Source of the DNA: an uncultured Candidatus Thioglobus sp.
GTDB lineage: Bacteria; Pseudomonadota; Gammaproteobacteria; PS1; Pseudothioglobaceae
Assembly (NCBI GenBank): GCA_905182815.1
Contig: CAJJCX010000004.1
Coordinates: 620,001 to 684,000, forward strand
Direction of reading: 5' to 3'
Length of the DNA: 64,000 nt
In this document: positions 41,894-46,933 of the stretch, in pieces
Numbering within the stretch: the stretch's first letter is position 1
How the letters are laid out: each line of letters starts with the position of its first letter
The notes under the pieces: model-generated
The model's input: only the letters and a program-made list of their open reading frames with translations
Databases searched by the model: none
Told to the model about the DNA's origin: nothing
Made by a program: the position numbers and the translations under genes

Positions 41894-41968
41894 ATGATTA
41901 AGGACTTTAATTCAATCACATTACTTTCACTAAGCAAGCTCTTTGCTTTGTTGCGATTATTGCCGTAA
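41894..41968 (+). CDS. leuL: Leucine-rich leader peptide of leuA
   Basis: A 24-codon frame beginning MIKDFNSITLLSLSK with eight leucines (TTA, CTT, CTA, CTC, TTG, TTG, TTA, TTG), ending Leu-Leu-Pro-stop. It lies between a TATAAT box and leuA. A run of leucine codons directly before leuA is the hallmark of leucine attenuation leaders. There is no Shine-Dalgarno. The stop codon sits in the loop of the hairpin at 41956-41977. Too short to be found by ordinary gene calling. The symbol is by analogy with E. coli leuL; the sequences are unrelated. Confidence 0.75.
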   Translation: MIKDFNSITLLSLSKLFALLRLLP

Positions 41969-42044: not shown

Positions 42045-43578
42045 ATGTCCGAAAAACTAATAATATTTGATACAACACTTAGAGATGGAGAACAATCACC
42101 TGGTGCATCTATGACCAAGGATGAAAAAGTTCGTATCGCTAAAAGTTTAGAAAAAATGAGAGTTGATGTTATTGAAGCTGGTTTTGCAATTGCATCTCAA
42201 GGTGACTTTGAAGCTGTTCAAGCAGTTGCTAAAGCCGTGAAAGATTCAACAGTGTGTTCATTAGCAAGAGCTCTTGATAAAGATATTGATCGAGCAGGAG
42301 AGTCAATTAAAGGTGCAAATTCTGCTCGAATTCATACTTTTATAGCAACCTCTGATATTCATATGAAGATGAAGCTAAGAATGACGCCTGATGAAGTTGT
42401 CACTCAAGCAATTCGCTCTGTTAAAAGAGCAACAAAGTTTACTGATAATATTGAGTTTAGTCCAGAAGATGCTGGTCGTTCAGATATTGATTTTCTCTGC
42501 CGAATAATTGAGTCAGCTATTAATGCTGGAGCAACAACAATTAATATTCCAGATACAGTTGGATACAATATACCTCATCAATTTGGTGAAACAATGAGAG
42601 AGTTAATTGAGAGAATTCCAAATTCTGATAAGGCAATTTTCTCTGCACACTGTCATAATGATTTAGGTCTTGCAGTTTCTAACTCACTTTCAGCAGTTTT
42701 AAATGGCGCAAGACAAATTGAATGCACTATTAATGGGCTTGGAGAAAGAGCTGGGAATACCTCTCTTGAAGAGGTTGTAATGGCTGTTCGAACTCGGCAG
42801 GATGTATTTGGGCTAGATACAAATATTGATGCTACAGGTATTCTTGCTGCCTCTAGATTAGTATCTTCCATTACTGGGTTTGTTGTTCAACCAAACAAAG
42901 CTATTGTTGGAGCTAATGCTTTTGCGCATGAAGCTGGAATTCATCAAGATGGAGTCCTTAAGCATAGAGAAACCTATGAAATCATGAGGGCAGAGGATGT
43001 TGGATGGAATCAGAATTCATTAGTACTTGGTAAACATTCTGGCCGGAATGCTTTTAAAGCTAGACTTACAGAATTAGGTATTGATTTTGATTCCGATGAG
43101 GCGCTAAATGATGCTTTTGCTAGATTTAAAACCTTAGCCGATAAAAAGCATGATATTTTTGATGAAGATCTTCAGGCTTTGGTTTCAGATGCCCAAACTG
43201 AGTCATCCGAAACAATTCACTTGAGTTTCACTCAAAGTATCTGCTGAATCTGGGAAAGAGAATACTGCAGATGTAACACTGTTGATAAATGGTAATGAGC
43301 AAAGTGCTTCAGCTAAAACATCTGGCGCAGTTGATGCTACGTTTAACGCAATACTTTCATTAGTTGATATTGATCCAAAGCTTCAATTGTATTCTGTAAC
43401 AAATGTAACTCAAGGAACCGACTCTCTTGGAGAAGTCAATGTTCGCTTAGAATATGAAGGGAAAATTGTAAATGGACAGGGGGTTGATACTGATATTATT
43501 ACTTCATCCGCTAAAGCATATGTCAATGCTCTTAATAAAGTAATGACAAATGTTGAGAGAGCTCATCCGCAGATTTGA
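42045..43578 (+). CDS. leuA: 2-isopropylmalate synthase (frameshifted as read)
   Basis: First committed step of leucine synthesis. [17 protein letters not shown] and [19 protein letters not shown] are the two HMGL-like signatures, and HCHNDLG carries metal ligands. The C-terminal LeuA dimer/regulatory domain ([36 protein letters not shown]) is in another frame. The break is near 43228-43240: an extra base turns LKVSAESG into a stop. Joined length is about 510 residues. A good RBS (AAAAGGAGC) precedes the ATG. It sits behind a leucine-rich leader peptide. Confidence 0.95.
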
Positions 43579-43988: not shown

Positions 43989-44668
43989 ACTATTCGCTTA
44001 ACTCATATAAGAGACCCAAGCTAGAGACTCCTAATGGTGAAAAAAGACTATTAATGCACTCATGCTGTGCCCCTTGTGCTGGAGAAATTATGGAGGCTTT
44101 GGCCGCATCAGAAATTGAGACAACAATTTTTTTCTATAATCCAAATATTCATCCTTTTGAGGAGTATGAGCTTAGAAAAGAAGAAAATATTCGCTTTGCA
44201 AAAAAACTTGGGATGCCAATTATTGATGCAGATTATGATCGTGATGAGTGGTTTTCGAGAACAAAAGGCCAAGAGAATGAGCCAGAAAGAGGAGAGAGAT
44301 GTTCTACTTGTTTTGATATGAGGTTTCAAAAAACAGCTAAATATGCCTCTGAAAATAATTTTGATATTATTTCTTCAACACTTGGAATTTCTCGCTGGAA
44401 AGACATGAAGCAAATTAATGACTCAGGTGCCAGATCTTCTGAGCCACACAATGTTCCCTATTGGGATTTTAATTGGCGCAAACAAGGAGGATCTTCTAGG
44501 ATGCTTGAGTTATCCAAAAAAGAAAACTTCTATCAGCAGGAGTATTGTGGATGCGTCTATTCCCTGAGAGATACTAATAATTGGAGAATCTCAAAGGGTC
44601 GAGAAAAGATTGAAAGAGGTGTTAAGTTTTATCAAGAAGCTAAATTAAAACTATCTCAACTAGATTAG
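43976..44668 (+). CDS. queH: Epoxyqueuosine reductase QueH
   Basis: 230 residues (DUF208). Final step of queuosine synthesis in tRNA, the cobalamin-independent alternative to QueG. Metal-cluster cysteines: HSCCAPCAG (30, 31, 34), RCSTCFDMR, and [25 protein letters not shown] and [11 protein letters not shown]-like [13 protein letters not shown] are family blocks. Its end overlaps convergent argF by 4 bp. Works downstream of queE at 9589. Confidence 0.9.
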
Positions 44669-45567
44669 TCTTTAATCAGATACAGTAATAGTGATTTCTG
44701 AACATGTAGTCGATTTTCAGCTTCACTCCATACAACACTCTGTTCTCCATCAATCACCTCTGCACTTACCTCTTTGCCTCTATAGGCTGGAAGGCAGTGC
44801 ATAAATATTGCATCATCTTTAGCCTGACTCATCAATTTTTGATCAACTTGAAAGCCCTTAAACGCTGCTTCTCTCTGTTTTATTTCTAATTCTTGTCCCA
44901 TACTAGTCCAAACATCAGTAACAATAATGTCGGCGCCTCTGCAAGCATCATTAGGATTTGTAAAATAACTGATATTTGTTTTATATTTTTCAATAAAATC
45001 ATCAGATGGTCCATAACCAACTGGAGTTGCAATCGAAAGGTCAAAGTCAAATATTGCTGCAGCTTGCATATATGTCTGACAAACATTGCAGCCGTCACCA
45101 ATCCATGCTATTTTTTTACCTTTGATTGAGCCTCTATGTTCTTGATAAGTCATTAAGTCGGCAAGTATTTGGCAAGGATGAGATTCGTCTGAAAGAGCGT
45201 TAATAACTGGCTTACTTGAATGCTTTGAAAACTCAACTATATCTTCATGTGAGGACATTCTTAGCATTATTGCATCAACCATAGAGCTAATAACTATAGC
45301 GCTATCAGTAATTGGCTCACCTCTTCCTAGTTGTATATCTTTTTCAGAGAGAAAAAGTGACTGTCCACCAAGCTGCGTCATTCCTGCTTCAAATGAAACT
45401 CTAGTTCGGGTAGAGGATTTATCAAAAATCATTGCTAAAGTTTTGTTTTTAAGGGTTTCATTTATAAGTCCAGATTTATGCTCTTTTTTAAGCAAGATAG
45501 CTCGATCTATAATTCCTTGTAAATCATTTTGAGAGAATTGGTCAAAGTCGATGAAATGATTGGGCAT
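44665..45567 (-). CDS. argF: Ornithine carbamoyltransferase
   Basis: Makes citrulline from ornithine and carbamoyl phosphate. 300 residues. Carbamoyl-phosphate motif [29 protein letters not shown]; ornithine motif [10 protein letters not shown]; and [13 protein letters not shown]. Second gene of argD-argF, 8 bp after argD, and presumably under the same leader at 46762-46933. Confidence 0.95.
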
Positions 45568-45575
45568 AGTTATTC

Positions 45576-46739
45576 CTAAATAGTAATTAGTTTTATAATC
45601 TTATTGATCAAGATATCAATTTCTTTTTTAGATATTATTAGTGGCGGCAGCATTCTAATAGAATTACCAGTGATGTTTATTAATAGCTTGTCTTCTAAAG
45701 CCTTTTGAGTAAGTTTGCTGCAATCAATAATATTTTCATCAAGTCCAATACCAATCATCAGTCCTTTGATCCTTAGCTCCTTTACCACACTATAACTCAT
45801 TATTTTGGACTTAAATTCTGACTCAAAATATTGACTCATTTTCATTACGTTATCAAGAATTAAGTCATTCTCAAAGACGTCAAGAACACTTGAAGCTACG
45901 CCCGTTACTAGTGGGTTACCTCCAAAGGTTGAGCCATGAGTTCCTGGAGTTAGCATCTCAGCAGCTTTACCTTTGGCTAGGCAAGCTCCAATTGGAACGC
46001 CGTTACCTAAGCCTTTTGCAAGGCAGAGAATATCAGGAGTAATTTTGTTGTGCTGGTGAGCAAAAAGCCTTCCTGTTCTTCCCATTCCTGCCTGAACTTC
46101 ATCAAGAATATAGAGCCATTCATTTTGTTCACAAAGTATTTGGACTTTATTTAAGTAATCTGATTGAGGAATTATAACTCCAGCCTCTCCTTGCACAGGT
46201 TCAAGCATGACAGCAACTACATCTTTATTTTTACTGTATTTATTAATAGCATCAATGTCATCAAAGTCAACATGAACAAACTCACTCATTAGTGGAGCAA
46301 AACCCTCTTGAACTTTGCTTTGACCTGTTGCAGAAAGAGTTGCCATTGTTCTTCCATGAAAACCTTTATTTGCAGTTAAAACAATTGGATTATGAATATT
46401 TTTAGAGCGTGCATACAGCCTAGCAATTTTAATGGCAGCTTCATTCGCTTCAGCTCCAGAGTTTGAAAAGAAGGCTTTGTCCATATTAGCAAGTTGACAT
46501 AGACGTGTTGCCAGTTTTTCTTGGTTTGCAATGCGGTAAACATTTGAGGTGTGAAGTAGTTTTTTTGACTGATTGACTATACTCTTTGTAATTGCTGGAT
46601 GAGAGTGGCCAAGGTTCACTACGCCAATGCCTGAAAGTGCATCAAGGTATTCATATCCAGATGTATCAGTTAACCAACAGCCACTCCCTTTTACAAAGGT
46701 AACCTCGAGTGGGTAATAGTTAGACATTAAGTTTGACAT
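45576..46739 (-). CDS. argD: Acetylornithine aminotransferase
   Basis: PLP enzyme of arginine synthesis, class III aminotransferase, 387 residues from the ATG at 46739. An earlier in-frame start at 46775 is rejected because it lies inside an intrinsic terminator. GCWLTDTSGYEYLDALSGIGV, FFSNSGAEANEAAIKIAR, LDEVQAGMGRTG and the PLP lysine in LCLAKGLGNGVPIG are typical. Acetylornithine and succinyldiaminopimelate activities often coexist. The leader has an Arg-containing peptide and an attenuator. Confidence 0.95.
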   Translation of the reverse strand: MSNLMSNYYPLEVTFVKGSGCWLTDTSGYEYLDALSGIGVVNLGHSHPAITKSIVNQSKKLLHTSNVYRIANQEKLATRLCQLANMDKAFFSNSGAEANEAAIKIARLYARSKNIHNPIVLTANKGFHGRTMATLSATGQSKVQEGFAPLMSEFVHVDFDDIDAINKYSKNKDVVAVMLEPVQGEAGVIIPQSDYLNKVQILCEQNEWLYILDEVQAGMGRTGRLFAHQHNKITPDILCLAKGLGNGVPIGACLAKGKAAEMLTPGTHGSTFGGNPLVTGVASSVLDVFENDLILDNVMKMSQYFESEFKSKIMSYSVVKELRIKGLMIGIGLDENIIDCSKLTQKALEDKLLINITGNSIRMLPPLIISKKEIDILINKIIKLITI

Positions 46740-46761: not shown

Positions 46762-46787
46762 AAAAAAAGCCCCATAATGGGGCTTTT
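46762..46787 (-). terminator. Attenuator terminator before argD
   Basis: On the minus strand AAAAGCCCCA and TGGGGCTTTT form a 10-bp stem with a three-base loop followed by seven U, ending 22 nt ahead of the argD start. Leader bases at 46821-46830 (AATGGTGGCT on the minus strand) can pair with AGCCCCATT of this hairpin (46776-46784) through nine pairs and one bulged U, which would prevent the terminator from forming. Confidence 0.75.
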
Positions 46788-46808
46788 GAATCTAAGTTAT
46801 TTGCCAGA

Positions 46809-46898
46809 TTAAGGCAAATTAGCCACCATTAATAAATAAACGTGAAGACAAGATCTTCGAGAAATATAAGGTTTTATTCGGCGTGATTCAGATAACAT
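46809..46898 (-). CDS. Arginine-containing leader peptide of argD-argF
   Basis: A 29-codon frame beginning MLSESRRIKPYISRRSCL with two Arg-Arg pairs (codons 6-7 CGC CGA and 14-15 CGA AGA), ending Asn-Leu-Pro-stop. The last codons overlap the antiterminator segment, and the stop codon lies in the loop of the hairpin ATTTGCC/GGCAAAT. A TATAAT at 46928-46933 is 30 nt upstream. No strong Shine-Dalgarno. Layout and pairing fit ribosome-controlled attenuation by arginyl-tRNA supply; expression is not shown. Confidence 0.6.
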   Translation of the reverse strand: MLSESRRIKPYISRRSCLHVYLLMVANLP

Positions 46899-46927
46899 TT
46901 CAATATTCAGTAAAACTCAAAAGATTT

Positions 46928-46933
46928 ATTATA
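46928..46933 (-). promoter_or_regulatory. -10 element of the argD leader
   Basis: TATAAT on the minus strand, placing the transcript start near 46921, about 23 nt ahead of the leader-peptide ATG. No clear -35 is seen. Confidence 0.45.

What the first reader, a model, noticed from the sequence alone, without database searches (positions are those of the whole stretch)
46762..46933. Candidate arginine attenuator controlling argD-argF
Seen: on the minus strand a TATAAT box, a 29-codon frame with two Arg-Arg pairs, then a 10-bp terminator stem with seven U, then argD 22 nt later. Minus-strand bases AATGGTGGCT (46821-46830, leader codons 23-26) can pair with AGCCCCATT (46776-46784) in nine pairs with one bulged U, which is mutually exclusive with the terminator. 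A ribosome stalled at codons 14-15 would leave this segment free; one reaching the stop codon would cover it. Known: this is the logic of trp/his/leu attenuation. Arginine genes of Gammaproteobacteria are better known for control by the ArgR repressor. The arginine assignment is inference.
Basis: partly seen in the sequence, partly recalled or inferred. Interest (0 to 1): 0.85.

Follow-up and report, generated by a model that had tools for sequence, protein, structure and literature searches.

The report
Arginine attenuator before argD-argF genes
A marine bacterium seems to switch its arginine-making genes on only when a ribosome, short of arginine, stalls on two arginine codons in a tiny leader gene, a design seen in every relative of its genus where these genes could be read.

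Summary
The window is from the SUP05/Pseudothioglobus group. All 23 genus genomes in which argD was found (of 29; the other 6 are 53-74% complete) share one layout: TATAAT, a leader of 27-29 codons (21 in one), Arg-Arg as CGA-AGA, GGYGGY 32 nt on (31 in one), and a terminator whose 5' arm GCCCC lies 44-45 nt further. CGA-AGA is identical in 23 of 23, while the five invariant Arg residues of ArgD use 3-5 codons each. GCCCC folds onto GGYGGY in 22 of 23. The frame is open in 22 of 23; the frameshifted one stops early where a ribosome would still cover GGYGGY. ArgR was not found in 36 family genomes. Corrections: only the second Arg pair is conserved, and covariation is weak because the core pairs never vary. 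Sister genera keep promoter and terminator but carry a 67-aa ORF instead, so the element is genus-specific. Best reading: classical ribosome-mediated transcription attenuation responding to charged tRNA-Arg; a new member of a known kind. No expression data were available.

The parts
46928..46933 (-). -10 box TATAAT of the argD promoter
   Evidence: Exact TATAAT in 23 of 23 genus loci, 72-78 nt before CGAAGA; transcription start not mapped. The consensus scan lists no promoter here, so no clear -35 was recognised.
46809..46898 (-). leader ORF, 29 codons plus TAA
   Evidence: over 78 nt the frame is open in 22 of 23 relatives, against 2 and 4 of 23 in the other two frames. The only gap before the Arg pair in the alignment is 3 nt (L023); L013, L015 and L018 start one or two codons later.
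46854..46859 (-). control codons CGA-AGA (Arg14-Arg15)
   Evidence: Identical bases in 23 of 23.
46844..46858 (-). small hairpin GAAGA/TCTTC over the control codons; possible pause hairpin
   Evidence: 89.6% of cells paired, no change on both sides; the 5' arm is invariant, so every break comes from the 3' arm. Function inferred, weak.
46821..46830 (-). antiterminator 5' arm AATGGTGGCT, inside leader codons 23-26
   Evidence: GGYGGY at +32 from CGA in 22 of 23, +31 in L006; all five GCCCC bases pair with it in 22 of 23 minimum-energy folds.
46799..46819 (-). hairpin ATTTGCC/GGCAAAT with the leader stop codon in its loop; lies inside the antiterminator loop
   Evidence: predicted in near relatives, different or absent in others.
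46776..46784 (-). antiterminator 3' arm AGCCCCATT, which is also the terminator 5' arm
46762..46787 (-). intrinsic terminator, 10-bp stem and U7
   Evidence: terminator stem in the fold of 23 of 23.
45576..46739 (-). argD, acetylornithine aminotransferase
   Evidence: NCBIfam TIGR00707 argD 450.6 bits against cut-off 410.05.
44665..45567 (-). argF, ornithine carbamoyltransferase, 8 nt after argD
   Evidence: TIGR00658 373.2 bits against cut-off 280.85; same strand, gap 8-10 nt in 23 of 23 genus loci.

Best explanation
The argD-argF operon is controlled by ribosome-mediated transcription attenuation sensing arginine. RNA polymerase starts at the TATAAT promoter and transcribes the leader ORF with a ribosome following. 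When charged tRNA-Arg is short, the ribosome stalls at CGA-AGA (codons 14-15), leaving AAUGGUGGCU free; as the next RNA emerges it pairs with AGCCCCAUU, the terminator cannot form, and argD-argF are made. When arginine is plentiful the ribosome reaches the stop codon, covers GGUGGC, the terminator forms and transcription ends after about 160 nt. Shown here: anatomy, fixed spacings, codon locking, open frame, operon context, ArgR not found. Inferred: the transcription start, leader translation, the stall, and the direction of the response.
For: Layout in 23 of 23 genus loci. CGA-AGA the same in 23 of 23, whereas 0 of 5 invariant Arg columns and 3 of 167 invariant columns of the 18 amino acids with several codons (one each Ile, His, Phe) keep one codon in ArgD; fourfold sites are 37% identical (29% if fully saturated), leader residues outside the pair 32% (22 of 23 leaders). 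Frame open in 22 of 23 against 2 and 4 of 23 in the other frames. GCCCC wholly on GGYGGY in 22 of 23; all five paired upstream in about 4% of shuffles and 1 of 45 sister-genus terminators. Spacing fits: CGA to GGYGGY 32 nt, GGYGGY to stop 16 nt in 22 of 23 (ribosome footprint recalled). L006 lost one base and stops 7 nt before GGYGGY, still within reach of a terminating ribosome. argD-argF spacing conserved in 23 of 23. ArgR in 0 of 36 family genomes, many of them incomplete.
Against: No RNA-seq, Ribo-seq or genetics. Covariation is weak: 2 pairs with changes on both sides, reached by 159 of 500 shuffles; covariation score reached by 125 of 500. From the stall point to the U run the minimum-energy fold is the terminator in 23 of 23, so the antiterminator must win by forming first. 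In L020 only 2 of the 5 GCCCC bases pair with GGYGGY; in L010, L011, L013 and L017 31-43 of 100 shuffles fold at least as well. 17 of 45 sister-genus terminators without the leader also have at least four GCCCC bases paired upstream. Few leaders show a Shine-Dalgarno sequence (by eye). No conserved 1:2 hairpin was identified. ArgR was also not found in 18 of 21 other class genomes, so its absence is not specific.
Confidence: 0.86

Rival explanations
1. Arrest-peptide sensor: the nascent leader peptide itself binds free arginine or ornithine in the ribosome tunnel and arrests, as recalled for SpeFL with ornithine.
For: Arg-Arg at a fixed place and a nearly constant penultimate Leu (21 of 22 leaders); the operon handles ornithine; an arrest at the stop codon would also favour the terminator.
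Against: Outside Arg-Arg the peptides share 32% identity on average, minimum 8% (22 of 23 leaders), little for a tunnel sensor; exact codons, not only residues, are fixed; 6 of the 23 leaders tested match no Pfam family at E up to 10, DUF2618 of SpeFL included; L006 ends 8 codons after the start of the pair.
Confidence: 0.06
2. RNA-level element: CGAAGA is a site for an RNA-binding factor or part of a riboswitch; the ORF is secondary.
For: Six nucleotides invariant in 23 of 23, more than an Arg pair needs; further conserved bases without a role just before the terminator.
Against: Open frame in 22 of 23 points to translation; no Rfam family reaches its gathering score in the window region or in the three leader loci L006, L022 and L103; the spacing matches ribosome geometry; the hairpin partner of CGAAGA varies while CGAAGA does not.
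Confidence: 0.05
3. Ordinary or partial 5'-UTR terminator with an incidental ORF.
For: Sister genera carry a like terminator without the Arg leader.
Against: The terminator lies between the promoter and the genes it would silence, raiA upstream is divergent, and Arg codons, spacing and antiterminator are conserved together in the genus.
Confidence: 0.03

Closest known systems
trp/his/leu-type ribosome-mediated transcription attenuators of enterobacteria (recalled)
   Same: Short leader ORF with tandem control codons, antiterminator overlapping the 5' arm of an intrinsic terminator, biosynthetic operon downstream.
   Different: Arginine specificity; the antiterminator 5' arm lies inside the ORF; no clear 1:2 hairpin; six control nucleotides invariant.
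uORFC-8-2 motif upstream of cysS in Rhodobacterales (PMC8632094, passages read)
   Same: Predicted ribosome-mediated attenuator with two tandem control codons, usually at positions 14 and 15 of the uORF, and an intrinsic terminator.
   Different: Cysteine and a tRNA-synthetase gene; UGC dominates there but UGU occurs, here the codons are fixed.
Salmonella orf34-speF leader (PMC6386406, passages read)
   Same: Gammaproteobacterial leader ORF in which two consecutive Arg codons (12-13) mediate control by arginine.
   Different: Acts through Rho, RNase G and translation of an ornithine decarboxylase; carries the DUF2618 motif; the Arg codons could be exchanged for other Arg codons without loss of arginine control.
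Pseudomonas aeruginosa carAB leader (known here only as cited in PMC4997734, passages read)
   Same: A leader peptide upstream of a gene serving arginine and pyrimidine synthesis, attenuation proposed.
   Different: Attenuation is cited for pyrimidines, arginine acting at the transcriptional level; its sequence was not compared here.

Membership tests
ribosome-mediated transcription attenuator | Promoter, short ORF and intrinsic terminator in this order before the structural genes | tested here: met
   TATAAT, leader and terminator in order in 23 of 23; transcription start not mapped.
ribosome-mediated transcription attenuator | Tandem codons for the end product of the controlled pathway | tested here: met
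   CGA-AGA in 23 of 23; argD-argF downstream.
ribosome-mediated transcription attenuator | Leader frame under coding constraint | tested here: met
   Open in 22 of 23 against 2 and 4 of 23 in the other frames; the exception L006 stops early in a fitting place.
ribosome-mediated transcription attenuator | Antiterminator that excludes the terminator, placed so that stalled and terminating ribosomes expose or cover it | tested here: met
   22 of 23 by folding, fixed spacings.
ribosome-mediated transcription attenuator | Antiterminator helix supported by covariation | tested here: inconclusive
   89.1% of cells paired, 2 pairs with compensating change, not above shuffles.
ribosome-mediated transcription attenuator | 1:2 protector or pause hairpin | tested here: inconclusive
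   A local GAAGA/TCTTC hairpin exists; in the window GCC of codons 6-7 can pair with GGC of the antiterminator arm, but codons 6-7 are not conserved.
ribosome-mediated transcription attenuator | Termination relieved by starvation for the amino acid | not testable with these tools
   Needs RNA or reporter data.
SpeFL / DUF2618 leader | Match to the DUF2618 profile (core HIRRT) | tested here: not met
   0 Pfam families for each of 6 of the 23 leaders at E up to 10; HMMER's filters drop most weak matches.
Rfam amino-acid leaders | Score at or above the family gathering score | tested here: not met
   Best at this place 26.5 bits (rimP, cut-off 47) and 25.7 (Phe_leader, cut-off 55).

The most novel reading that the evidence does not exclude
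The switch is codon-locked, not only amino-acid-specific: the invariant CGA-AGA dicodon makes the ribosome need two different isoacceptors, tRNA-Arg(ACG), reading CGA by inosine wobble, and tRNA-Arg(UCU), in succession, so that the pair is tuned to a particular charging pattern. The premature terminator is an old module whose sensor ORF was exchanged: a 67-aa ORF in sister genera, an Arg leader in this genus.
Probability: 0.3. Interest if true: 0.65.

Novelty: new member of a known kind. Interest (0 to 1): 0.55.

Why it matters
Arginine genes of Gammaproteobacteria are usually explained by the ArgR repressor (recalled). In this marine group, where no ArgR was found, an arginine-specific intrinsic-terminator attenuator appears to do the job, and no account of it was found in the searches made (open-licence full text only). 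The strict codon identity offers a natural test of why attenuators choose particular synonymous codons; the L006 frameshift and the 67-aa ORF of sister genera show how such switches tolerate damage and may be exchanged.

Tried and rejected
Rejected: (a) the first Arg pair as a conserved control element. (b) The hairpin over CGAAGA as the reason for its invariance: its 3' arm varies and breaks single pairs in up to 5 of 23, and no pair shows compensating change. (c) Spread beyond the genus: a covariance model from the 23 leaders hit 5 of 369 class genomes at E <= 0.01: the window genome and four at E 0.002-0.006, about what chance gives over 369 searches. Among the ORFs near those four, read by eye, I recognised no argD. 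That search used stricter filters and scored 8 candidates per listed genome, so weak relatives could be missed. (d) An arginine regulon of such leaders: the 13 of 25 argG loci and 13 of 25 argC loci that I read lie behind another reading frame, and the script's terminator test found nothing in any of the 26. argB, argH, argJ, argA and carA were not examined; the composite pattern occurs once per genome. (e) RNAalifold finds the terminator and a 2-bp helix, no compensating pairs. (f) Likeness of the leader's last codons (Met-Ala-x-x-Leu) to the end of the sister-genus 67-aa ORF was noticed by eye, not tested. (g) A 67-aa ORF elsewhere in the genus: 0 of 29 genomes (which has no positive control of its own).

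Rows left out: L006 is left out of the codon-column table and of the leader identity mean (22 of 23 used). The sister-genus control used 45 of 50 loci; 5 had no GCCCC/GGGG terminator by the script's pattern (four of genus g2 with a decayed stem, and L084 with a variant stem); G036, which has neither ORF nor terminator, was not given to it. Genus genomes without an argD hit (6 of 29) are not in the leader counts. L031-L035 and L036, L037, L040 are named or duplicate records and were not counted again.

Full report
Identity and context. The nearest named record has 97% ArgD identity and is titled Candidatus Pseudothioglobus aerophilus; the next are titled SUP05 cluster. The operon is argD-argF (NCBIfam cut-offs passed), 8 nt apart in the window and 8-10 nt in 23 of 23 genus loci; raiA is divergent upstream in 30 of 30 family loci compared.

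Observation. The pairing with one bulged U between codons 23-26 and the terminator 5' arm is in the minimum-energy fold of the RNA that exists before the terminator's 3' half is made.

Conservation. ArgD was found in 23 of 29 genus genomes, including 11 of 11 that are at least 90% complete and at most 5% contaminated. All 23 have an ATG-started ORF with CGA at codon 12, 13 or 14 and AGA next, GGYGGY at +32 (22) or +31 (L006), GCCCC 44 or 45 nt further, and a stop 48 nt after CGA (22) or 24 nt (L006) (for L010, L014, L016 and L017 that script took an ATG further upstream, and the nearer ATG was used). A pattern search of 83 family genomes found the composite once in each of these 23, in none of the other 60 (6 of the genus without an argD hit, 54 of other genera), and never when read backwards.

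Is CGA-AGA special? In ArgD of the same 23 genomes 174 residues are invariant. Of the 167 such columns of amino acids with more than one codon, 3 keep one codon in all 23 (one each Ile, His, Phe); 0 of 5 Arg columns do, and these use 3-5 codons each. Fourfold sites are 37% identical between genomes, 29% expected at full saturation, so shared ancestry alone hardly explains six fixed bases. Outside the pair the leader peptides share 32% on average (22 of 23). In the window's 50 long ORFs CGA is 12% and AGA 47.5% of Arg codons. In the own genome (25 tRNA loci found, assembly 76.8% complete) the tRNA-Arg anticodons are ACG, TCT, CCG and CCT, so the two codons need two isoacceptors. That CGA is read slowly through inosine is recalled.

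Is it translated? Over 26 codons around the pair the leader frame has no stop in 22 of 23, the other frames in 2 and 4 of 23. The only gap before the pair in the alignment is 3 nt, in L023. Arg makes up 87 of 654 leader codons, against 3.8% in the window's long ORFs. L006, from a genome in one contig, lost one base after the pair; its new stop lies 7 nt before GGTGGC, so a ribosome ending there would still cover it. Against: few leaders show a Shine-Dalgarno sequence, judged by eye.

Antiterminator. In 22 of 23 all five GCCCC bases pair with GGYGGY; L020 pairs two. Shuffling the upstream stretch gives five paired bases in about 4% of cases; in sister genera with a like terminator it holds in 1 of 45, though 17 of 45 reach at least four. 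Per-pair counts: 89.1% of cells paired; three core GC pairs never vary, so covariation cannot test them; compensating changes are few and not above shuffles. From the stall point to the U run the minimum-energy fold is the terminator in 23 of 23, so the antiterminator must act by forming first, as recalled for other attenuators. The whole window leader folds better than its shuffles (z -2.66, 2 of 200 as low).

Regulator context. A search with the Pfam ArgR model found none in 29 genus and 7 other family genomes, many incomplete; it rang in E. coli. But 18 of 21 other class genomes also gave no match, so this leaves room for attenuation without proving it.

Sister genera. All 51 other family genomes with argD were read upstream of it. 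50 carry, before argD, an ORF of 64-67 codons with a shared sequence: script-listed in 38 of 40 loci and in 6; 6 by eye, of which L067 and L071 from the ORF's tail only. One (G036) shows neither ORF nor terminator. One member of the ORF family matches no Pfam or NCBIfam family and nothing in the 29 genus genomes. In four genomes of genus g2 the ORF persists while the G+C terminator has decayed, which suggests a real protein rather than only a leader. A terminator at the same place is shared with most of these loci, so the ORF before it differs by genus.

Literature. Four papers were opened, passages only: PMC4997734, PMC2965389, PMC6386406, PMC8632094; the other papers listed were seen only as listings with the start of the abstract. 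Searches for arginine attenuators of argD or argF, or in SUP05/Thioglobus, showed no description of this element. The library lacks most subscription journals, so a prior description elsewhere cannot be excluded.

Verdict. A classical attenuator with arginine specificity, conserved through one genus; a new member of a known kind, with codon locking as its unusual feature.

Noticed in passing
window 41894-41968 (+): A 24-codon Leu-rich leader (MIKDFNSITLLSLSKLFALLRLLP, 8 Leu) precedes leuA. 21 of 23 genus leuA loci show a 24-codon leader with 7-10 Leu ending in LLRLLP (L186 was misread because its flank was cut, L202 gave no ATG). It is followed by a hairpin over the stop and a TAGACGAARGTCTA-like hairpin, with no U-run terminator seen by eye: probably a leucine attenuator with another output.
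   Followed up: partly
L024-L029, L045-L084, L099-L102 (sister genera, upstream of argD): A conserved unknown 67-aa protein sits between raiA and argD, in many with a hairpin ACCAATCA..TGATTGGT over its stop codon just before the argD terminator; ORF in 50 of 51 genomes.
   Followed up: partly
L086, L087, L088, L090, L091, L092, L093: In other Gammaproteobacteria a GGCAG-type hairpin followed by a T run lies close before argD, in several soon after a promoter-like box and with little room for a leader ORF (by eye): perhaps another kind of argD attenuator.
   Followed up: no
window 43240-43290 and G000:C4:235826-237001: leuA of the window is split over two frames (ORFs end at 43247 and start at 43282) and argG of the same genome has six in-frame stops, while the other genus genomes with a leuA hit have open frames of 511-544 aa: probably assembly errors.
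   Followed up: no
window 46788-46796 (-): CTTAGATTC just before the terminator (CTTAGTTTC-like in relatives) is strongly conserved in the 23 leaders without an assigned role.
   Followed up: no
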